A stretch of 64,000 nucleotides of DNA. Source: Yersinia massiliensis. GTDB taxonomy: Bacteria > Pseudomonadota > Gammaproteobacteria > Enterobacterales > Enterobacteriaceae. Shown here piece after piece: positions 1 to 14,758 of this stretch. How positions within the stretch are numbered: position 1 is the first letter of the stretch; each line of letters starts with the position of its first letter. Position numbers and translations under genes: made by a program. The notes below the pieces were generated by a model that was given only the letters and a program-made list of their open reading frames with translations, did not search any database and was not told the origin of the DNA. The stretch covers positions 558,001 to 622,000 of the forward strand of contig NZ_CP028487.1 of the NCBI RefSeq assembly GCF_003048255.1, in the 5' to 3' direction.

Positions 1-288
1 ATAGTAACCTTTATTCTCATCGAGCAATTGTTCTATTTGAGGATTTGTATATTTATCATTAGAACTAACATCGAGAATAAATGGTTTGTCACCCTGAATT
101 TCGGCTATAAGTGTCATTCGACGATGGATATCACCATCAGGTGCCACTTTGGTTTTTCGTGACTTTGTTAACTCGTATATAGGTAGGATTTCAGAGAGTA
201 TGTCATCATTAAGACGAGATATTGCTTTTAACTCTGCATCTCTAGTTTTGATTAATGGAAAATATTTAAATTTTTTAATATTTTTCAT
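1..288 (-). CDS. beta family protein, N-terminal part (runs off window)
   Basis: Ninety-six codons are open from an ATG at 288 to the window edge, so the gene is truncated by the window and not necessarily broken. The start overlaps the stop of the ImmA/IrrE gene as ATGA, which suggests translational coupling. The N-terminus (MKNIKKFKYFPLIKTRDAE) followed by an ILPIYELT strand resembles the phage T4-type beta protein family (Pfam Beta_protein), whose biochemical role is not known to me. Family assignment rests on this short stretch. It is the third gene of an AT-rich cargo operon unlike the surrounding tail genes. Confidence 0.6.
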   Translation of the reverse strand, partial: MKNIKKFKYFPLIKTRDAELKAISRLNDDILSEILPIYELTKSRKTKVAPDGDIHRRMTLIAEIQGDKPFILDVSSNDKYTNPQIEQLLDENKGYY

Positions 289-827
289 AGATTATGTCCA
301 TCATACCCAAGCTGTTGAGCACGAATGCGAACAGCCATAGATGATACTTCAAAATGTGCCGCTATATCAGATACTTTCTGAGAATGATTCTCAATATAAT
401 ATCTAAAATCGCTATCCGGCATTAATAATTCAGCTGCAAATTTATTGGCCTCAACTTCCATTCGATCTGTCTGTCCATTTCTGAAGAAAACACTATCAGT
501 AAAAACTTCAGTAATCATGGCATGCTTGATAAAATGCCCTATTTCATGGGCTATTGTAAAACGCTGGCGATGAGGGTGGTGTAAAGAATTTACTGTCATT
601 ATCCATGTGCCAGACTTGTCTTTTTTTAGGCATCCTGACTCTTCACCTAACATGGGTTCCATCCGCATAGTAATGCCAAGTAATTTTGTCAGGGCTGATA
701 CATCTAGTGGGCTGGTCTTAATGTTTTTTTCTTTAGCAAAAGACAATAATTCGTCGGGAGCAATTAAGTTTTGTATATCCGGTTTTTTTTCTTTGTCCTC
801 GGTAGGTTTTTTTCTGATAAATGCCAT
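285..827 (-). CDS. ImmA/IrrE family metallo-endopeptidase
   Basis: 180 residues. A zinc-metallopeptidase motif HEIGH sits at residues 94-98 and is followed about 28 residues later by EVEANKFAAELLMP, which gives the third glutamate ligand (E126) and the family's typical FAAxLLMP helix. The C-terminus (SQKVSDIAAHFEVSSMAVRIRAQQLG) is the usual small helix-turn-helix-like tail. Relatives (ImmA of ICEBs1, IrrE of Deinococcus) cleave repressors to switch on genes, or act in stress and toxin-antitoxin modules. No Xre-type repressor partner is visible next to it, so its substrate is unknown. It abuts the membrane-protein gene exactly and overlaps the beta gene by 4 bases. Confidence 0.85.
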   Translation of the reverse strand: MAFIRKKPTEDKEKKPDIQNLIAPDELLSFAKEKNIKTSPLDVSALTKLLGITMRMEPMLGEESGCLKKDKSGTWIMTVNSLHHPHRQRFTIAHEIGHFIKHAMITEVFTDSVFFRNGQTDRMEVEANKFAAELLMPDSDFRYYIENHSQKVSDIAAHFEVSSMAVRIRAQQLGYDGHNL

Positions 828-1571
828 TTACTCAACCTCCTTTTTTAGAACAAATGATCCACCATCATTATCAACAGTATCTTTTAGTGCTATATTTTTT
901 GCTAAAACATTTATATACCTTTTTAGCTCACTATTTTCTTTAGCTATAGCATCAACTTTTTCCGATAAAGTTCTTAACTCACTAATATCCCCTGCAATTT
1001 CTGAAATTGTTTCTATTTGCTCATTTAAATCAAACTGAGTAGATGCTATTTTTTCATTAATTTTACGTTCTACTTTATCTTCAATTACTGCCTTGACACT
1101 TTTGTCAAATTTAATGCTATCCATGTGAGCGTTAACCTCAATTATTGCTTCTTCTCTAGCCATCGCGTTAGATGAATGCTTTACCATGAAAAAAGCGAAT
1201 GCTCCTAAAATCGCATTAATAGCAATAAGTACCGTAATGATTGTTTGATAGAAGCTACTTTGGAATGACCAAAGATCGTCTAGGCTGAGTATTGTACCAT
1301 TTGCAACTAATTCACCGATATGGTGGAGCATTAGTGGATCTTTAAGTGAATTTGGTTCTTTTAAAAAATATTGGTTGCTTAAGCCCAAATATGACAAAAA
1401 TCCGTGCTTCATTGTCAATTGTAAAACAAAAACCCAGCAAAAAAATGTTGCTACAGAGGAAAATAATATAGAGCAAACCGTAATCCATCGATTATGGTAG
1501 CAAATCTTTATTCGCCCAGAGGAATTATTGGGTCCATTGGATTGAGTTGAACCATTTTCAGTAACTGCCAT
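828..1571 (-). CDS. Two-helix membrane protein with coiled-coil domain (cargo operon gene 1)
   Basis: 247 residues of unknown function. Two hydrophobic segments are visible at about residues 31-52 and 109-130, separated by a polar loop of about 55 residues. The following 110 residues are charged and heptad-rich (IEDKVERKINEKIASTQFD and onward to the C-terminus), predicting a cytoplasmic coiled coil. The stop codon TAA directly abuts the ImmA/IrrE start, and the SD for that start lies inside this gene. The architecture of a membrane anchor plus a coiled-coil sensor arm is common in phage exclusion and abortive infection modules, but I do not recognise a named family. Confidence 0.72.
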   Translation of the reverse strand: MAVTENGSTQSNGPNNSSGRIKICYHNRWITVCSILFSSVATFFCWVFVLQLTMKHGFLSYLGLSNQYFLKEPNSLKDPLMLHHIGELVANGTILSLDDLWSFQSSFYQTIITVLIAINAILGAFAFFMVKHSSNAMAREEAIIEVNAHMDSIKFDKSVKAVIEDKVERKINEKIASTQFDLNEQIETISEIAGDISELRTLSEKVDAIAKENSELKRYINVLAKNIALKDTVDNDGGSFVLKKEVE

Positions 1572-6002: not shown

Positions 6003-6471
6003 ATGAGTGATTATCATCACGGCGCGCGTGTCCTCGAAATCAACGACGGCACCCGCGTCATTTCCACTGTGTCCACTGCCATTGTCGGCATGGTCTGCAC
6101 CGGCGAGGATGCCGACGCGGCAACATTCCCCCTCAACACCCCGGTATTGATTACCAATGTGTTAGCCGCCGCCGGTAAAGCCGGTAAAAAAGGCACGCTG
6201 GCCGCGTCATTGTTAGCCATTGCAGAGCAGGCCCGCCCAGTGACCATTGTTGTTCGTGTCGCTACCGGTAAAGATGAGGATGAAACCACGTCTAATATTA
6301 TCGGCGGTGCTGACGAGAACGGCCGCTACACCGGCATGAAAGCGTTGTTAGATGCGCAATCAGTCACCGGTGTGCGCCCGCGTATTCTCGGTGTGCCGGG
6401 GCTGGATAATCTGGCGGTATCGACGGCGCTGGCGGATATTTGCCAGAAGCTGCGCGCCTTTGGTTATATCA
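6003..6471 (+). pseudogene. FI: Tail sheath gpFI, 5' part, interrupted by transposon
   Basis: The first 156 codons of the contractile tail sheath. They start MSDYHHGARVLEIND, as in P2 FI, and the sheath motif GVRPRILGVPGLD lies near residues 123-135. The reading frame is cut at ..FGYI by the transposon end. It runs on through the inverted repeat and stops at 6581, giving a 192-residue chimera if translated. Joining 6003-6471 to 14058-14758 restores a 389-residue protein, close to P2 FI (396). Without sheath the phage cannot assemble a contractile tail. Confidence 0.95.
6467..6471. repeat. Target site duplication, left copy (TATCA)
   Basis: TATCA immediately precedes the left inverted repeat and is repeated immediately after the right one. 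Five bases is the standard Tn3-family duplication. Confidence 0.97.
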
Positions 6472-6509
6472 GGGGTCTGACGCTCAGTGGAACGAAAACT
6501 CACGTTAAG
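6472..6509 (+). repeat. Left terminal inverted repeat (38 bp)
   Basis: Identical over 38 of 38 bases to the reverse complement of 14015-14052. Begins GGGGTCTGACG and ends ACGTTAAG. The tnpA stop codon (6505-6507) lies inside it, as in Tn3. Confidence 0.97.
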
Positions 6510-9500
6510 CAACGTTTTCTGCCTCTGACGCCTCTTTTAATGGTCTCAGATGTCCTTTGGTCACCAGTTCTGCCAGCGTGAAGGAATAATGGCCGAGCAT
6601 ATTGATATGTCCGTGGCAAAGCGGGGAGAGGCGTGCGATATCATCATCATTCAGTGTTTCACCCTGCGCCCGGAGATGATCCAGGGCTGCCTGCATATAA
6701 ATAGTGTTCCATAACACGACGGCGTTAGTGACCAGCCCCAGTGCTCCCAACTGATCTTCCTGACCGTCGGTATATCGTTTTCTTATCTCACCTTTTTGAC
6801 CGTGACAGATGGCTCTGGCAACGGCATGGCGGCTTTCTCCCCGATTAAGCTGGGTCAGAATGCGCCGGCGGTAATCTTCATCATCAATATAATTAAGCAG
6901 ATACAGCGTTTTGTTGATGCGCCCCACTTCAATGATTGCCTGAGTCAGTCCGGAAGGACGTTCACTTTTCAGCAATGAACGGACCAGCACTGAAGCCTGT
7001 ACTTTGCCCAGCTTCAGGGAGCCAGCGGTCCGGATCATTTCGTCCCACTGAAGGACTATTTTTCGGGGATCTGATTGCCCTCTAGCAATATCATTCAGCA
7101 CACCATAGTCGGCATCATGGTCCATTCGCCAGAAAACCGAAGCACCGGCATCAGCCAGGCGTGGAGAAAACTGGTATCCCAGCAGCCAGAAAAGGCCAAA
7201 GACAAGTTCGCTGGCACCTGCTGTATCGGTCATAATTTCGGTTGGATTCAGCCCGGTCTCCTGTTCCAGAAGGCCTTCCAGCACAAAGATAGAGTCCCTC
7301 AGCGTCCCCGGTATAACGATGCCATGAAAGCCGGAATACTGATCGGACACAAAGTTGTACCAGGTGATCCCTCTGTTATTACCAAAGTATTTGCGGTTCG
7401 GTCCGGCATTGATTGTTCTGACTGGCGTAACAAAGCGCATTCCATCTGCAGATGCCACTTCTCCTCCACCCCATATCTGTGCCAGTGGCAGCGTTGCCTG
7501 AAAATCAACCAGTCTGGCATTAGCGCTGGTGATAGTTTCAGCCCGCAGATAGTTCGCTTTTGTCCAGTTCAGCCGGTGTCGGGTCAGTGCAGGAACATTT
7601 GATCTGATCAGTGGTTCCAGACCGATATTGCAGGCTTCAGCCATCAGCACGGCGCTGATGCTGACGGGCAGATCATCAACTCTGGCACTGGCTTCACTAG
7701 CATGGAAAAACTCATCAGCAAATCCGGTATGGGCGTTAATTTCGAGTAGCAACTCCGTTAAATCTACCGGAGGGAGCAGATCACTGATCATTTTGCTCAG
7801 TCGTTTCAGACTGTCCGGCTCATCAAGACTGGCGAGGGGAGAAATTGTCAACCGGGGCTTCGGGCCAGAAACATCGAGTTCGACAGCCTCATTTTCGCCA
7901 AGACGTGCAGCAACCTGTCTGTAACGACTATCAAGCTGATGACCCAGAGATTTTATTGCTTCCTGCGGGTCTGTCGGGTGCCCCAAAGAACGATAAACCT
8001 TAATCCGGTTTGCCTGCCAGTCAGCACCCTGTAGTAATCTTGCACGAGGATCTCCCCACCGGTTACTGCCGGTAACGTAGACATCCCTCCGCCTCAGACT
8101 ATCCTGCAGTTTACTGAGAAAGCAGAGCGTGTATCCCCTGCGGGTGATATGTTTGTCCTTGTTAATCACCAGCCGTTTCCATGACCGACTGATAATTTCC
8201 GTTGGTGCGTCGTCAAAAAACTGCCGCCGTGAGCTGAACTCTCGGCTGAGGTAGTCACAGGCATTCAGAGTGGTAACCCCGGCAGGTGCGGATGAAAATT
8301 TAACGGTATTCAGCAGATGGGGCAGGAAACGACGAACGCGCCCGTACTGCTCCACCATTTCTTCATGAAAATTATCGTCTGAGGGCCGGGCAATTTCACG
8401 GACAAGCGTGATGATTTCAGCCAGCTTTTGTCTGGGGATGTAGCTGAACACCTCAGCACGAATCGATTCGTCCGGTGTTTCTTCTTTCAGCAGGTACGAA
8501 CATGCGCTGGCGAGCGCCAATGCAGATTTATCCAGATCCTTCAGCGAGCGGAGCCGTTTTTTCTGCCCAATCTTTCTGGCGTCACGGATGATAACGGCCA
8601 GCATGGCGTCCAGAACGTCCAGTGCATCATCCAGCGCCAGCGTTTCCCATGCAAGGACAAAGGCAACCAGAACCGCTATCCTTTTCTGCGGTGACATCCT
8701 GGCAATATTGAACACCGAAGTCATACCAGCATAACGTGCGAGATTTTTCAGGCGCACAGCCGGGAGTGTACTCAGGTTGTCAGCATGCAGGCCAAAATCG
8801 TTCAGAGTTTTCCAGCGTTCAATTGCTTCATTAAACGCCGGACCACTGATGGTCACAGGGCCTTTTTTCAGTGATTCCAGTAAAGACAGGCGGCTGCAAT
8901 CAGTTGGCCCCAGCAGCATCTCCAGCTGTGAACGCTGTTCGGCTGACGGTATCAGTGCCAGTTTGTTCCACAGGCGCAACGTCGCCTTTTCCCTTACCTC
9001 TGAAATCAACCGGGTCAGCGTAGTGGCTCCGGGGAGAATAATACGATGTTGCATAAGCCACCCTGTCGCCAGATCGAAAAGCAGGCCAGGACGTTCGTTG
9101 CTTATCCAGCTCCGGGTATATAAAAGACGGGTAAGGCGAAATGTCCAGGGCCAGGCAAATTCACGATACTGATAGTGCTGACGTATCAGCGCTGCATGCT
9201 CACGGCGGGTATTTTCCCTCTGACCGTATTCTGCAAGAACGGTGATATCACGAATCCCGAGCTGTCTGGCGGTAAAATGCCGGACGCCGGAAGGAATATG
9301 ATTCATATCGGTGAGGAAGGTGCCCAGAAAACGGACACATCCAATTTGCAGGGCAATGCCCAGACGGTTGTGATCACCTCTGCTTTTTCCGATAAATTCC
9401 TTGTCTGCTTCATCAAGGTGAAAATATCGTGCCAGCTGAAGCTCATCCGGTTCACCGGTGAATCTGCCATAGCTTTCAGTCTGCTCAGTGGTCAGAAAGT

Positions 9501-9510
9501 CAACGGGCAT
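6505..9510 (-). CDS. tnpA: Tn3 family transposase TnpA
   Basis: 1001 residues, full family length. It catalyses cleavage and strand transfer at the 38-bp ends to give cointegrates. The N-terminal DNA-binding part begins MPVDFLTTEQTESYGRF. The C-terminal RNase H-like catalytic core shows the acidic residues in EVASADGMRF, EIMTDTAGASE and RYTDGQEDQLGALGL, the likely D-D-E set. It is close to Tn3 TnpA throughout and has no frameshift. It is transcribed away from tnpR with res between them. Codon and base use are more GC-rich than the gajAB cargo. Confidence 0.96.
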   Translation of the reverse strand: MPVDFLTTEQTESYGRFTGEPDELQLARYFHLDEADKEFIGKSRGDHNRLGIALQIGCVRFLGTFLTDMNHIPSGVRHFTARQLGIRDITVLAEYGQRENTRREHAALIRQHYQYREFAWPWTFRLTRLLYTRSWISNERPGLLFDLATGWLMQHRIILPGATTLTRLISEVREKATLRLWNKLALIPSAEQRSQLEMLLGPTDCSRLSLLESLKKGPVTISGPAFNEAIERWKTLNDFGLHADNLSTLPAVRLKNLARYAGMTSVFNIARMSPQKRIAVLVAFVLAWETLALDDALDVLDAMLAVIIRDARKIGQKKRLRSLKDLDKSALALASACSYLLKEETPDESIRAEVFSYIPRQKLAEIITLVREIARPSDDNFHEEMVEQYGRVRRFLPHLLNTVKFSSAPAGVTTLNACDYLSREFSSRRQFFDDAPTEIISRSWKRLVINKDKHITRRGYTLCFLSKLQDSLRRRDVYVTGSNRWGDPRARLLQGADWQANRIKVYRSLGHPTDPQEAIKSLGHQLDSRYRQVAARLGENEAVELDVSGPKPRLTISPLASLDEPDSLKRLSKMISDLLPPVDLTELLLEINAHTGFADEFFHASEASARVDDLPVSISAVLMAEACNIGLEPLIRSNVPALTRHRLNWTKANYLRAETITSANARLVDFQATLPLAQIWGGGEVASADGMRFVTPVRTINAGPNRKYFGNNRGITWYNFVSDQYSGFHGIVIPGTLRDSIFVLEGLLEQETGLNPTEIMTDTAGASELVFGLFWLLGYQFSPRLADAGASVFWRMDHDADYGVLNDIARGQSDPRKIVLQWDEMIRTAGSLKLGKVQASVLVRSLLKSERPSGLTQAIIEVGRINKTLYLLNYIDDEDYRRRILTQLNRGESRHAVARAICHGQKGEIRKRYTDGQEDQLGALGLVTNAVVLWNTIYMQAALDHLRAQGETLNDDDIARLSPLCHGHINMLGHYSFTLAELVTKGHLRPLKEASEAENVA

Positions 9511-9554
9511 ATCGGTCTCCCTGCCTGACGGGCATTTAGTAACACTTTTGCAAC

Positions 9555-10252
<698 letters not shown>

Positions 10253-10253
<1 letters not shown>

Positions 10254-12019
10254 TGAATATCCAAATTGATGTTGTTCGAATTTGTGGATTCAGAGGTGTC
10301 TCCAATGTGGAGGTTATTTTGCCTCGGGTAACTGTATTGTTTGGCCAAAATAACGCAGGGAAAACATCGATAATAAAAGCCCTGCAACTTTCATTAGGGG
10401 ATTATTCTCGGTATTTATCTGATGAGGATTTTCATATTGGCGATGATGAAAAGAGACAAGATAACATTACAATTGACTTGCGTTTTATTGCATTAGATCG
10501 CGGCATTAGAACCGCTGAGTTTTCAGAATCATGGCAACAAGAATTTGGTGATTCGATACAAGCAGAGGCTGATGGGAAACAATTTGTAGCAATACGAACA
10601 ACTGCAAAGCCTGATAGAGTTAAAGGTGGATATAACGTCGAACGATTTTATTTAGATGTTTGGCCGAATGCCGAAAATTGGCAAGATTCTCGCATTAACA
10701 GTAAAAATAAGATGGGAAGGAGACTCGAGTCCATACCTTTTATTTCTATAGATGCACAGCGAGATATCCATAATGAGTTGAAAGAAAAATCTTCGTTTGT
10801 TGGTAGAGTTCTATCAAGTATTGAATACGGTGATGATGATGTAGCAGAATTGGAAAAAATGGTTGCCGAAATCAACAAGGAAGCGATTAATAAAAGCGAA
10901 CCTCTTAAACGTTTAAAAATTCATCTTGATACTCTAAATCAATCATTTGAAGGGTCTGGACAAACTGAACTGACACCATTTCCAAAAAAAATAAGAGATC
11001 TTTCAAAACGATTCAGCGTGCATTTTGGAGAGTCTGATAAAAGCTCATTCTCTATGGAATACCATGGTATGGGAACACGCAGTTGGGCGTCTATATTAGC
11101 AGTGAAAGCATTTACAGAGTTGATGGCGACAAACCATGAGAAAGAAGCTGAACCATTCTTTCCAATATTAGCGGCGGAAGAACCTGAGGCACATTTACAT
11201 CCGAATGCGCAAAGAACACTTTTCCAACAATTACAAGATAGTCCTGGCCAAGTTATCATTAGTACACACTCCCCATATTTAGTGGGGATGTCAGAACTTG
11301 AAAACTTACGTGGGTTGATTAGAACATCAAATGCTATCAATGCTACGCAATTAATTAGTGGATTAGATCCAGAAGATATAAATATTCTTCAGCGAGAAAT
11401 TATGCGATTCAGAGGCGAGCTATTGTTCTCAAAAGCGCTAATATTATTCGAAGGTGTTACTGAAGAACAAATAATACCTTCAATGTTTTCAGCCTTTTTT
11501 AGAAAATCTGCATTTTCTCTTGGAGTAAATTGTATAAGTGTTTCTGGGAAAAACTACCCGCCATTTATAAAAATGGCATTGAGTTTTGGCATTCCTGTGT
11601 GCATTGTCAGTGATAACGATGGAAATACTAAAACGGAAATTGAATCTCAATTAAGGAAGATTGAAAGAAACACATCATTAATTCTGTCTGAAAAAAATTT
11701 ACATGTTTCCTATTTGTCACCTAAAAATGATATTGAGGCTGAGTTAATTCATGTTGTGGGGATGCGTCAAGAAATTATCGAGGCTCTGATTAATACGGAG
11801 ACAAGGGGGGGAAGTAATGCTGCCTATAATGAAGCTAAAACTAGAGAAATCGAGGCGCTTAGTGATGATGAGCTTCTAAAGAGAATGCGTTCCTCCAAGG
11901 CATCTTACGCTGGTTTTCTAGCTGATGTCATATTAAGAAATCCAAACAATAAAACAGTGGAACAATTAATACCTCAGGCTGTTATTGATACTTTTACTCA
12001 GCTAAAAGGGTGGGGATAA
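10253..12019 (+). CDS. gajA: Gabija protein GajA (OLD-family ATPase and Toprim nuclease)
   Basis: 588 residues, near the 578 of the founding GajA. GajA is an ATP-sensing, site-specific DNA-nicking endonuclease activated when nucleotide pools fall during phage infection. Visible parts in order are Walker A GQNNAGKTS (31-39), an ABC-signature-like region YHGMGTRSW (about 270-278), Walker B ILAAEEPEAHLHP (305-317) and H-loop STHSPY (337-342). A C-terminal Toprim domain follows, with LFEGVTEE (398-405) and SDNDGN (453-458). The ATG overlaps the tnpR stop by one base. The gene is visibly AT-richer than tnpA. A stand-alone OLD nuclease is less likely because the helicase partner follows. Confidence 0.92.
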
Positions 12020-13917
12020 TGATGTTGAACTTATCATCAAGTCAAGCTCAAATAGTGCACGCACCATTTAATAAAGCGATTCAAGTGCTTGCTTCAGCCG
12101 GTTCTGGTAAAACACGAGTTTTAACTGAACGAGTTCGCTATATATTGCAGAATACAAAAAAAGATGGAGTGATAGCGCTTACTTTCACAAACAAAGCTGC
12201 GGAAGAAATGTCTGTTCGCCTAGAGGACTGTATTGAAGCGGAAGATAGGGCTTGGATAGCAACAATTCATTCTGTGGCTCAGCGTATTCTTGAGAAGTAT
12301 GGGCATACAGTAGGATTACCTGCAGAGCTTCATATTTATGATCGAGATAAAGATCGAATGGAAGTTTTCCTCCAATCCTTACGTGAAGATGGCGTAAATA
12401 TTGATGAATATCTGAATATTTCTGATTCTAAGGAGCTAAAAAGTCGAGAAAAAAATCTTCAAAATTATATGGATATATTTTCAAGGATCAAGCGTGAGCT
12501 ATTTACAGAATCAGATGTAACAGAAAAATATCCAAACAGTAATATTTGGAAGGTCTTTCAAGACTATCAATCATCTTTAGTCAATAGTGGTGGGATAGAT
12601 TATGATGACATATTAGTTTATGCTCACAAAATTTTATTAACACATAACTGGATCGCTCAAATTTATCGTTCTCAGTACAAACATGTTTGTATCGATGAAG
12701 CTCAAGACTTAAATAAAGCCCAGTATGAGTTTATTAAGGCATTGTGCGGAGATGTCATCCACAGTGTATTCATGGTGGGAGATCCGAATCAGATGATTTA
12801 TGGGTTCAATGGTTCTTCAAAAGAGTATCTTTGCACCTATTTCTTGGAGGATTTTACTCCATTTCAGTTTGAATTAAGAGAAAACTATCGTAGCGCAAAG
12901 GCTATTATTAGGGCTGCGAATAAATTAAAGCCGAACTCTCAAGCGGAACTTGATTATGCCTTAGAAGGCGGTGTTAAGATAGTTTCTGCTGATACGGAAG
13001 AAGCTGAGGCTGAATGGATTACATCTACAGTTAAGCTGCTCTTAGAGTTAAAAACACATCCTGAAATAGAGGGTGACATATCTTTAGATAAAATGGTGGT
13101 TATAGCAAGGAATAGATTCGTTTTTAATAAACTAGAAGCTTGTTTAAAACAAAATAATATCCATTTTTCCATGAGAAAAGGAGAGCGTCAACTAGAGCCT
13201 ACGACAATTTTTGGAAGAATTCTCGATTACTCTATTCGCATAAAGCTAAATCCAAAAGATTGGGTTGATGGTAAAAAGTTGTGCTCGCTATTGGGAGTTA
13301 TAGCGCCTACGTCATGGTCAAATGGTGTTTTAAATATTTTAGCCAATCAAACTAAAAATCTGGATAGAGAAAACGCTGAATTGTATTCTGAGTTGATGAA
13401 TTCAATAAATAGCCTAGACGTTGATGAACCTAATATAAGAAAGTTCGTTCGTTTGTTTGAAGAAAAGTTAACTAGTTTAATTAGTCAAGGTACAGCTCCA
13501 TCTGAAGGGAAGTCTGAAGAGATAAAATTAAGTTTAGATGAATTGAATGAGTTTAGCAGAGCTTGGACCTTATTCAAACGCAAAGGGTTGGGAAATTCTT
13601 TAGTCGCTTTTAGAAATGCTTTAGCCCTTGGTCAGTTAACAGAAAACTCATTAGAAAATGGGTTGTTATTGAGTACCGTTCATACTATGAAGGGACTTGA
13701 AAAAGACATCGTTTTTTTGATGGGAATGTGTGAGGGTGTTTTCCCTGATTACCGAGCTAACTCATTAAAAGAAATTGATGAAGAACGTAATAATGCCTTT
13801 GTGGCAGTAACTCGCGCAAAGCGTTGGCTTTATGTTACGTACCCTAAACAAAGAATGATGCCTTGGAAGGATCTTAAGTTCCAACAGAAATCTCGCTTTG
13901 TCAGAGAAATAGAGTAA
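12019..13917 (+). CDS. gajB: Gabija protein GajB (UvrD/Rep-like helicase)
   Basis: SF1A helicase-like partner of GajA, proposed to sense DNA ends and be activated after GajA nicks. I place the start at the ATG at 12019, which overlaps the gajA TAA as TAATG and follows a GGGTGGGG Shine-Dalgarno-like run. An ATG at 12022 or a GTG at 12010 are alternatives. Of 632 residues, Walker A ASAGSGKTR is at 25-33, motif Ia ALTFTNKAAEEM near 56-67, motif II DEAQ at about 226-229 and GDPNQMIYGF near 255-264. Motif V-like TVHTMKGLE lies near 552 and motif VI VAVTRAKRWLYV near 594-605. It is longer than the founding GajB (494), nearer to a full UvrD core. Confidence 0.9.
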   Translation: MMLNLSSSQAQIVHAPFNKAIQVLASAGSGKTRVLTERVRYILQNTKKDGVIALTFTNKAAEEMSVRLEDCIEAEDRAWIATIHSVAQRILEKYGHTVGLPAELHIYDRDKDRMEVFLQSLREDGVNIDEYLNISDSKELKSREKNLQNYMDIFSRIKRELFTESDVTEKYPNSNIWKVFQDYQSSLVNSGGIDYDDILVYAHKILLTHNWIAQIYRSQYKHVCIDEAQDLNKAQYEFIKALCGDVIHSVFMVGDPNQMIYGFNGSSKEYLCTYFLEDFTPFQFELRENYRSAKAIIRAANKLKPNSQAELDYALEGGVKIVSADTEEAEAEWITSTVKLLLELKTHPEIEGDISLDKMVVIARNRFVFNKLEACLKQNNIHFSMRKGERQLEPTTIFGRILDYSIRIKLNPKDWVDGKKLCSLLGVIAPTSWSNGVLNILANQTKNLDRENAELYSELMNSINSLDVDEPNIRKFVRLFEEKLTSLISQGTAPSEGKSEEIKLSLDELNEFSRAWTLFKRKGLGNSLVAFRNALALGQLTENSLENGLLLSTVHTMKGLEKDIVFLMGMCEGVFPDYRANSLKEIDEERNNAFVAVTRAKRWLYVTYPKQRMMPWKDLKFQQKSRFVREIE

Positions 13918-14014
13918 AACGCTCATTTCTATTAATTAAAATGGCCCTTAGGGCGGAAAGTTTAACCTCACGGTAAGTTTTCGCTCTGTTGGCCTCCTAC
14001 TTTCAGAAAAGAAT
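13918..14014. other. Short non-coding stretch between gajB and the right end
   Basis: 97 bases with no gene. They contain a small dyad GCCCTTAGGGC (about 13944-13954) without a T-run and, at 13961-13995, a sequence resembling a degenerate Tn3-type inverted repeat (TTAACC...GTAAGTTTTCG). Confidence 0.6.
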
Positions 14015-14052
14015 CTTAACGTGAGTTTTCGTTCCACTGAGCGTCAGACCCC
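14015..14052 (-). repeat. Right terminal inverted repeat (38 bp)
   Basis: Exact reverse complement of 6472-6509. The adjoining TATCA at 14053-14057 is the second target duplication copy. A GTG at 14021 inside the repeat opens a frame that continues without interruption into the sheath remnant. Confidence 0.97.
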
Positions 14053-14057
14053 TATCA
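14053..14057. repeat. Target site duplication, right copy (TATCA)
   Basis: Matches 6467-6471. Deleting the transposon plus one copy rejoins GGT TAT ATC AGC GCC TAC in frame (Gly-Tyr-Ile-Ser-Ala-Tyr) in gene FI. Confidence 0.97.
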
Positions 14058-14758
14058 GCGCCTACGGTTGCAAGACTCTTTCTGAAGCCATTTTGTACCG
14101 CGACAATTTCAGCCAGCGTGAGCTGATGCTAATCTGGCCGGATTTTCTGAGCTGGAACACTACTGCTAATAGCACCGATATTGCTTATGCCACCGCCCGC
14201 GCGCTGGGTCTGCGCGCCAAGATTGACAACGATACGGGCTGGCATAAAACCCTGTCTAACGTCGGGGTGAATGGCGTCACCGGTATCAGTGCCAGCGTCT
14301 ACTGGGATTTGCAAACCGTTGGCACAGATGCCGACCTGCTAAACCAAGCCTGCGTCACAACACTCATCCGTAAAGACGGCTTCAAGTTTTGGGGTTCGCG
14401 TACCTGCTCTGATGATCCGTTATTTGCTTTCGAGAACTACACCCGCACCGCCCAAATTTTGGCGGACACCATGGCCGAGGCGCAGTTGTGGGCGATTGAC
14501 CGCCCGATGCACCCGACGCTGGTTAAAGACATGATTGGCAGCATCAACGCCAAATTCCGCGAAATGAAATCCGCCGGGCTGATTATTGACGGCACTTGCT
14601 GGTATGACGACAGCGCCAACGATAAAGACACCCTGAAAGCGGGCAAGCTGTTTATTGATTACGACTACACCCCAGTGCCACCACTGGAAGACCTCACCCT
14701 GCGCCAGCGCATCACCGATAAATATCTGGTGAACTTTGCCGCTGCCGTCAACAGCTAA
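14058..14758 (+). pseudogene. FI: Tail sheath gpFI, 3' part, interrupted by transposon
   Basis: The remaining 233 codons of the sheath, beginning ..[19 protein letters not shown] with no internal stop. The C-terminal sheath domain is recognisable by [20 protein letters not shown] and [19 protein letters not shown], ending 13 bases before FII. An in-frame GTG in the transposon repeat (14021) could start a 245-residue fragment, but that would lack the N-terminal third. The sequence itself is undamaged apart from the insertion. Confidence 0.94.

What the first reader, a model, noticed from the sequence alone, without database searches (positions are those of the whole stretch)
6472..14052. Gabija anti-phage system carried as cargo of a Tn3-subgroup transposon, itself inside a P2-like prophage
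Seen directly: perfect 38-bp Tn3-type ends, TATCA duplication, intact tnpA, res and tnpR, then an OLD-type ATPase/Toprim gene and a UvrD-like helicase gene filling the slot that holds bla in Tn3. Established: OLD nuclease plus UvrD helicase adjacent genes define Gabija (GajA, GajB). Inference: this element is a self-mobile defence transposon. Tn3-subgroup elements are best known for resistance genes on plasmids, so a Gabija cargo means phage defence can spread by the same route. Nesting in a prophage adds a second layer of mobility.
Basis: partly seen in the sequence, partly recalled or inferred. Interest (0 to 1): 0.92.

Follow-up and report, generated by a model that had tools for sequence, protein, structure and literature searches.

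The report
Jumping gene carrying phage-defence genes
A Tn3-type transposon, the kind best known for spreading penicillin resistance, carries what looks like the two-gene anti-phage system Gabija, and identical copies of it sit on the chromosome and on a plasmid-like molecule of one bacterium, so it has moved recently.

Summary
Window 6472-14052 is a complete Tn3-subgroup transposon with perfect 38-bp ends and a TATCA duplication. Its cargo matches Gabija profiles nearly end to end (GajA 798 bits, GajB 924 bits). Mobility is supported: a second copy, identical over 7,581 bp, lies on a 121.6-kb plasmid-like contig of the same genome.

Not in the finding:
(i) The element is a chimaera joined at res site I. 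The tnpA half is 99.1% identical to a transposon carrying a type III restriction-modification system; the tnpR-gajAB half belongs to a divergent lineage.
(ii) Related tnpR-gajA-gajB-IRR units lie in Xenorhabdus and on an Aeromonas plasmid, with tnpA broken.
(iii) A TnpS/TnpT-like Tn3-family element independently carries Gabija.
(iv) gajA overlaps the tnpR stop codon, so defence may be expressed from the resolvase-repressed res promoter.

Ten searches of open-access papers, four naming Gabija, gave no report of Gabija on a Tn3-family element. Defence activity is inferred, not shown.

The parts
6467..6471 (.). left copy of 5-bp target duplication TATCA
   Evidence: sequence
6472..6509 (+). left terminal inverted repeat (38 bp)
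   Evidence: identical in R-M sister Tn3s
6505..9510 (-). tnpA, Tn3 DDE transposase, 1001 aa, open throughout
   Evidence: NF033527 1164 bits; 99.1% aa identity to TnpA of the type III R-M transposon L115
9511..9686 (.). res region, presumed divergent tnpA/tnpR promoters
   Evidence: position between divergent genes; alignment with three relatives; function by analogy with Tn3 (PMC7157771 passages)
9566..9571 (.). TTATAA of res site I: chimaera breakpoint
   Evidence: near-identity to R-M Tn3s up to TTAT at 9569, divergence after it (against L097; against L115)
9687..10253 (+). tnpR serine resolvase, 188 aa
   Evidence: 79.9% to R-M Tn3 TnpR, 77-78% to Xenorhabdus and Aeromonas TnpR
10253..12019 (+). 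gajA, OLD-type ATPase/TOPRIM nuclease, 588 aa; start codon overlaps the tnpR stop
   Evidence: PDLC00067 798 bits; PF13175, PF20469; invariant motif residues; best fold matches are GajA structures
12019..13917 (+). gajB, UvrD-like helicase (start ATG 12019 or 12022)
   Evidence: PDLC00132 924 bits; PF00580, PF13361
13967..14000 (-). possible relic of an older right inverted repeat just inside the present one
   Evidence: resembles Xenorhabdus and Aeromonas right ends; 1 of 1000 shuffles reach the score for each of these two related queries, 5 of 1000 for the Tn3 end
14015..14052 (-). right terminal inverted repeat (38 bp)
14053..14057 (.). right copy of TATCA duplication
6003..6471 (+). 5' part of the interrupted P2-like tail-sheath gene
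   Evidence: phrog_23 positions 20-235; uninterrupted in 8 of 9 same-genus loci
14058..14758 (+). 3' part of the interrupted tail-sheath gene
   Evidence: phrog_23 positions 236-475

Best explanation
This is an autonomous Tn3-subgroup transposon whose cargo is a Gabija anti-phage operon. TnpA makes replicative copies between 38-bp ends, and TnpR resolves cointegrates at res (shown: open genes, ends, and two identical copies on two contigs; inferred: the biochemistry, from Tn3). gajA and gajB follow tnpR without a gap and are probably transcribed from the res promoter that TnpR represses (inferred). GajAB should sense phage-induced nucleotide depletion and cut DNA, as described for other Gabija systems (inferred from family membership). 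The element arose by recombination at res site I: a modern enterobacterial Tn3 tnpA half, shared with a type III R-M transposon, was joined to an older tnpR-gajAB half whose relatives survive with broken tnpA in Xenorhabdus and Aeromonas. This gave a defence module a working transposase again (breakpoint and two lineages shown; resolvase as agent and direction of events inferred). It probably arrived on the plasmid and then jumped into the prophage tail-sheath gene, likely crippling that prophage (inferred).
For: Ends, duplication and open genes. Gabija profiles over nearly full length; ATPase and TOPRIM motif residues invariant in 20 aligned GajA sequences; GajA model pLDDT 82.5 with best PDB fold matches to GajA 8u7i and 8sm3. 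Second identical copy on contig C2; the 1.5 kb next to it includes a replication-initiation gene and is 94.6% identical to a Yersinia massiliensis plasmid. Empty site in 8 of 9 same-genus loci. 98-100% identity per 200 bp to R-M Tn3 L115 over 6472-9471 (29 differences in 6472-9569), then 60-78% beyond the TTATAA of res site I. Xenorhabdus (L026) and Aeromonas plasmid (L128) units 90.7% identical over 4,734 bp, ending at the right repeat, in unrelated surroundings; between them gajA and gajB show dN/dS 0.12 and 0.10 and tnpR 0.25, while tnpA is broken in both. Published precedent for res-site I module exchange and for TnpR repression (PMC7157771, passages).
Against: The C2 copy has no 5-bp duplication. 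The deletion explanation rests on one related plasmid, to which C2 matches only in scattered pieces, with the replication region present twice. The whole chimaera was found nowhere else: no plasmid record among the 5000 best covers 80% of it; the cargo has no match in plasmids or E. coli genomes, and in 24 other same-genus genomes only one 38-bp hit. By sequence, the best PDB hit of GajA is an OLD nuclease (6p74, 5e-11; GajA entries about 1.6e-9), and that of GajB is UvrD (3e-52; GajB entries about 1e-10); no NCBIfam model passes its cut-off for either protein. Fold TM-scores are about 0.5, rmsd 9-15 angstroms. Defence activity, promoter use and transposition were not measured.
Confidence: 0.84

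Rival explanations
1. Gabija is cargo of the P2-like prophage, and the Tn3 ends are incidental.
For: The block lies inside a P2-like prophage, and this prophage has another candidate defence cassette.
Against: The identical unit, bounded by the same ends, sits on C2 next to plasmid genes; it interrupts a structural gene with a 5-bp duplication; P2-like relatives have the site empty in 8 of 9 loci.
Confidence: 0.02
2. The cargo mainly serves the transposon or its plasmid by excluding competing plasmids and phages, rather than protecting the cell as such; immunity of the cell is a by-product.
For: gajAB is fused to the transposition module. The same slot in related Tn3s holds R-M or toxin-antitoxin genes in several records, kinds of genes known to stabilise mobile elements (recalled).
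Against: The selfish and host-serving readings predict the same anatomy; loss of tnpA with retention of gajAB fits host benefit at least as well; mercury resistance also occurs in the slot.
Confidence: 0.35
3. The second copy is an assembly duplicate and the element has not moved in this strain.
For: The two copies are 100% identical and the C2 copy lacks a duplication.
Against: The flanks differ and both C2 junctions fall exactly at the 38-bp ends; the Tn3 DDE domain is open at both places; C2 is a 121,622-bp contig with plasmid replication genes.
Confidence: 0.05
4. The join at res is a product of homologous recombination or uneven divergence, not of resolvase.
For: No experiment. Res-flanking DNA is shared among Tn3s, so homologous exchange could also end there.
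Against: The change falls at the central TTATAA of site I, with near-identity up to it, as in published res-site exchanges.
Confidence: 0.2

Closest known systems
Tn3 / Tn1 / Tn2 (Tn3 subgroup, blaTEM cargo)
   Same: 38-bp ends, tnpA-res-tnpR layout (names recalled), cargo between tnpR and the right end; listed blaTEM records match about 48% of the element at about 95%
   Different: Gabija operon instead of bla; tnpR-cargo half from a divergent lineage
Tn3-subgroup transposon with a type III R-M system on K. pneumoniae IncC plasmid p1_130002 (CP064854, L115); no published name found
   Same: tnpA half 99.1% identical up to res site I; 38/38 ends and own AAGAA duplication; a defence cargo in the same slot
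   Different: MTase_III plus ResIII cargo; TnpR 79.9% identical; about 100-bp gap between tnpR and cargo
tnpR-gajA-gajB units of Xenorhabdus japonica (L026) and Aeromonas hydrophila pK533-strA (L128)
   Same: same gene order; TnpR 77-78%, GajB 71-72% identical; degenerate Tn3-type right end
   Different: tnpA broken by internal loss and no left end found; GajA 62% and 58% identical
Gabija of Bacillus cereus VD045 (PDB 8sm3; also 8u7i and others)
   Same: OLD-type ATPase/TOPRIM gene next to a UvrD-type helicase gene; best fold match
   Different: about 15% identity over the fold alignment; GajB here about 630 aa against 493-499 aa in the PDB chains
Tn7-like transposons carrying Gabija (PMC8649781, passages only)
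   Same: Gabija as transposon cargo (338 for OLD nuclease in their table)
   Different: different transposon family
Tn3-family elements with toxin-antitoxin modules (PMC7157771, passages only)
   Same: accessory module abutting res or the resolvase gene; exchange at res site I
   Different: those TA pairs lie upstream of the resolvase gene; here Gabija lies directly downstream of tnpR

Membership tests
Tn3 family, Tn3 subgroup | terminal inverted repeats of about 38 bp | tested here: met
   38/38 perfect; same ends as Tn3-subgroup relatives
Tn3 family, Tn3 subgroup | 5-bp target duplication | tested here: met
   TATCA at the window copy; absent at the C2 copy
Tn3 family, Tn3 subgroup | about 1000-aa DDE transposase | tested here: met
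   NF033527 1164 bits, PF01526 497 bits
Tn3 family, Tn3 subgroup | divergent serine resolvase gene with res between tnpA and tnpR | tested here: met
   layout, resolvase domain, res region aligned with relatives; resolvase binding not tested
Tn3 family, Tn3 subgroup | replicative transposition through a cointegrate, transposition immunity | not testable with these tools
   no experiment; two identical copies fit replicative movement
Gabija | GajA: OLD-type ABC ATPase plus TOPRIM nuclease domain | tested here: met
   PDLC00067 798 bits, PF13175, PF20469; fold search top hits GajA; sequence-only PDB search ranks an OLD nuclease first
Gabija | GajB: UvrD-like helicase | tested here: met
   PDLC00132 924 bits, PF00580, PF13361
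Gabija | gajA and gajB adjacent, same strand | tested here: met
   10253-12019 and 12019-13917
Gabija | ATPase and TOPRIM motifs intact | tested here: met
   G31, G36-K37-T38, E309-E310, H339, E400, D454, D493, E495 and K549 invariant among 20 aligned GajA sequences; their assignment to catalysis is recalled or inferred from motif position
Gabija | protection against phages | not testable with these tools
   needs an experiment

The most novel reading that the evidence does not exclude
Gabija in this lineage is a regulated part of the transposition module. gajAB is read from the res promoter that TnpR represses, so defence expression would burst when the transposon enters a cell without TnpR (by conjugation or transposition) and then settle. 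The mobile element would defend itself and its new host hardest at the moment of invasion, and res-site exchange would let such modules switch to fresh transposases when their own decay.
Probability: 0.3. Interest if true: 0.78.

Novelty: new variant of a known kind. Interest (0 to 1): 0.62.

Why it matters
Tn3-family transposons are well-known carriers of antibiotic resistance. The same backbone, with nearly identical transposase genes, is shown here to carry two different defence systems (Gabija and type III R-M) in the slot that holds bla in Tn3, and a second Tn3 subgroup appears to have acquired Gabija independently. Phage defence could therefore move between plasmids, prophages and chromosomes without an island, an integrase or a Tn7-type target system. 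The res-site chimaera suggests how a defence module with a dying transposase can become mobile again, and the tnpR-gajA overlap makes a link between transposition control and immunity directly testable. It also warns that defence genes found inside a prophage need not belong to the prophage.

Tried and rejected
Prophage-encoded Gabija: rejected because of the identical copy on C2. A tail-only bacteriocin instead of a prophage: considered, rejected because terminase-, capsid- and lysozyme-like genes lie upstream (L135; assigned by eye, not by a family search) and an ogr-like gene and tRNA-Met downstream. Cargo at DNA level in E. coli genomes and plasmids: no match; same genus: one 38-bp hit besides the window's genome. 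Phage records: only the Tn3 resolvase region of phage P7 (two records), 69.6%. Viral contigs: 2 Gabija loci at 53-58%, no tnpA or tnpR match in them. End-pattern census: 8 of 394 order genomes hold the 38-bp end with up to 3 mismatches; the cargo of the 7 other than the window's genome was not examined. GajB in the order: 3 of 394 genomes at E up to 1e-100, the window's own included. The R-M transposon in E. coli genomes: 0 of 5,426 hold 80% of it in one place. Promoter scan: 17 sigma-70-like hits against 13.3 in shuffles, so not used. No 5-bp duplication was seen at L021. In one search the window TnpR was extracted one base out of frame; corrected. Paper searches (10 of 10 used; those named Gabija): of the 5 papers holding 'Gabija' and 'Tn3', passages were read in 4, none describing Gabija on a Tn3-family element; the fifth concerns chewing candy and was seen in the listing only. 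Passages were also read in PMC7157771, PMC12607529 and PMC13227991.
Full report
WHAT IS THERE. Window 6472-14052 (7,581 bp) is bounded by perfect 38-bp inverted repeats and flanked by TATCA on both sides. It encodes tnpA (1001 aa, minus strand), then divergently tnpR, gajA and gajB. TnpA matches the Tn3 family transposase model NF033527 at 1164 bits. TnpR has resolvase and HTH_7 domains; its likely start is 9687 (188 aa). GajA and GajB match PADLOC profiles PDLC00067 (798 bits) and PDLC00132 (924 bits) nearly end to end, far above the next profiles at 222 and 293 bits, and carry the expected Pfam domains (AAA_15 and OLD-like TOPRIM; UvrD helicase N and C). No NCBIfam model passes its cut-off for either. 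In an alignment of 20 GajA sequences the ATPase and TOPRIM motif positions are invariant. An AlphaFold2 model (mean pLDDT 82.5, pTM 0.80) finds Gabija GajA structures first in the PDB (8u7i E 1.5e-22, 8sm3 E 5.3e-20), an OLD nuclease third, with TM-scores of about 0.5. By sequence alone the PDB ranks an OLD nuclease just above GajA, and UvrD above GajB, as expected for a divergent branch.

HOST AND SETTING. The window is bases 558001-622000 of a 4,986,001-bp contig in a genome of 5,164,900 bp and 3 contigs. The genus is probably Yersinia: the 1.5 kb beside the copy on C2 (121,622 bp) includes a replication-initiation gene and is 94.6% identical to a Yersinia massiliensis plasmid. The insertion splits a P2-like tail-sheath gene (phrog_23 positions 20-235 and 236-475) in a prophage that runs from terminase- and capsid-like genes (by eye) to an ogr-like gene next to a tRNA-Met and rpoD. 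In 8 of 9 same-genus loci examined the two flanks are contiguous, that is, the site is empty; the ninth, L110, lacks part of the gene. Those nine are the best-matching of 18 other genomes with a match, out of 24. A tail-sheath break probably stops the prophage making infectious particles, so the prophage is a victim rather than a vehicle (inference).

IT HAS MOVED. The same genome has a second copy on C2 (8043-15623), identical over all 7,581 bp, and both places hold an open Tn3 DDE domain. The C2 copy has no direct 5-bp repeat (TATTA/GAATA). Its two flanks match the Y. massiliensis plasmid at places 8,479 bp apart, which fits an adjacent deletion made by intramolecular transposition, a known behaviour of replicative transposons (recalled). 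But C2 matches the fetched 21.6 kb of that plasmid only in scattered pieces, and its replication region occurs twice on C2, so another rearrangement is possible.

A CHIMAERA JOINED AT RES. Against the complete type III R-M transposon L115, the element is 98-100% identical in 200-bp blocks from 6472 to 9471, with 29 differences over 6472-9569, then falls to 78%, 66%, 72% and 60%; TnpA is 99.1% identical (L097 gives the same picture). At base resolution the near-identity ends at TTAT of the TTATAA in res site I (9566-9571). The right half is related to units in Xenorhabdus japonica (L026) and on Aeromonas hydrophila plasmid pK533-strA (L128): TnpR 77-78% identical and DNA alignments of about 70-72% through tnpR and parts of gajA and gajB. 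At protein level TnpR of the R-M element is no more distant (79.9%); what ties the right half to Xenorhabdus and Aeromonas is the shared tnpR-gajA-gajB order. Base composition also changes there (about 50-54% G+C in tnpA, mostly 33-45% beyond). Just inside the present right end lies a possible relic of an older right end (13967-14000) resembling the Xenorhabdus and Aeromonas ends; 1 of 1000 shuffles reached the score for each of these two related queries, 5 of 1000 for the Tn3 end. A simple history, inferred, is that a modern Tn3 landed beside the old right end and exchange at res then linked its tnpA to the old tnpR-gajAB. Exchange of modules at res site I is published for other Tn3-family elements (PMC7157771, passages).

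AN OLDER LINEAGE AND AN INDEPENDENT ONE. L026 and L128 share 4,734 bp at 90.7%, ending at the right repeat, in unrelated surroundings. The L026 right end has 9 mismatches out of 38, against a best of 13 in 200 shuffles. In both, tnpA survives only as pieces of its start and of its later part, yet gajA and gajB are open, with dN/dS 0.12 and 0.10 between the two (tnpR 0.25). So the defence genes were kept while the transposase was lost, although part of that constraint may predate the loss. Locus L021, a Pseudomonadales metagenome contig, is a different Tn3-family element: transposase with the Tn3 DDE domain (453 bits), a divergent KfrA_N coiled-coil gene and a tyrosine recombinase (a TnpS/TnpT-like layout), then gajA and gajB, all between 61-nt inverted repeats 85% complementary. 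In all, 3 of 89 Gabija-bearing loci tested held Tn3 transposase sequence: 2 of 79 from the genome-contig scan, 0 of 2, and 1 of 8 plasmid loci. Many loci are short contigs, so this is a lower bound. The 8 plasmid loci were read out of 12 records with a GajB match at E up to 1e-60. The association is real but uncommon.

SISTER ELEMENTS. In the four near relatives read, a DNA methyltransferase gene follows tnpR. The whole R-M gene pair was seen in L115; in L097 and L098 an IS follows the methyltransferase gene, and L099 runs to the end of its record. The L115 proteins match MTase_III (257 bits) and, weakly, REase_III (32 bits) and ResIII. L115 has two perfect 38-bp ends and its own AAGAA duplication. 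Its cargo has matches in 70 of 72,556 plasmid records, 20 of them over at least 80% of its length. More distant relatives sharing tnpR carry mercury resistance, toxin-antitoxin pairs or other genes there (5 records read), so the slot is general and not reserved for defence.

HOW IT PROBABLY WORKS. The tnpR stop and the gajA start overlap (TAATG) here and are 4 bp apart in Xenorhabdus and Aeromonas; gajB likewise can start at the gajA stop. In Tn3-family elements res sites hold promoters of tnpA and tnpR, and TnpR of Tn3 represses transposase expression by binding there (PMC7157771, passages). I therefore infer one tnpR-gajA-gajB transcript under TnpR control, which would give a burst of defence when the element enters a naive cell. 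This is untested; the promoter scan was uninformative. GajAB should act as in other Gabija systems, degrading nucleotides and nicking DNA (passages of PMC12342005, and recalled).

RARITY AND NOVELTY. The cargo has no DNA match in plasmids or E. coli genomes, and one 38-bp hit in 24 other same-genus genomes. Among predicted proteins the nearest full-length GajA are 97% (source unnamed) and 96% (Morganella morganii), and the next 79%; their surroundings could not be read. Gabija as Tn7-like cargo is published (PMC8649781, passages). No paper describing Gabija on Tn3-family transposons turned up in ten searches of an open-access library that lacks most subscription journals (four of them named Gabija). 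I rate this a new variant of a known kind.

Noticed in passing
window 1-1571 and L135:11639-14571: Cassette between the lysis and tail genes of the P2-like prophage: proteins matching PADLOC 'cll' and 'beta' (PF14350), an M78 peptidase (CapP-like) and a protein without a PADLOC match; a second candidate defence set in the same prophage.
   Followed up: partly
L115:3002-11350 (K. pneumoniae CP064854): Complete Tn3-subgroup transposon with type III R-M cargo, perfect ends and AAGAA duplication; cargo has matches in 70 plasmid records.
   Followed up: partly
L021:29-9172: Tn3-family element of TnpS/TnpT-like layout carrying gajAB in a Pseudomonadales metagenome contig.
   Followed up: partly
G000 C2:109002-109039, C2:120037-120201 and C1:4979624-4979734: Tn3-type end with 5 mismatches and two short transposase fragments elsewhere in the host genome, traces of earlier Tn3-family insertions.
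   Followed up: no
G000 C2:6030-7446 and 98258-99028: The replication region of the Y. massiliensis plasmid matches C2 twice, so C2 may be a fused or rearranged plasmid.
   Followed up: no
P0002 (Morganella morganii): GajA 96% identical on 76 contigs, longest 4.16 Mb: possible second host of the same module.
   Followed up: no
L137-L140: Tn3-family elements with related tnpR carry mer or toxin-antitoxin genes in the slot that holds Gabija here.
   Followed up: partly
G162:C1:1903279-1905081: Related gajB with an internal TAA stop in another genome of the same order.
   Followed up: no
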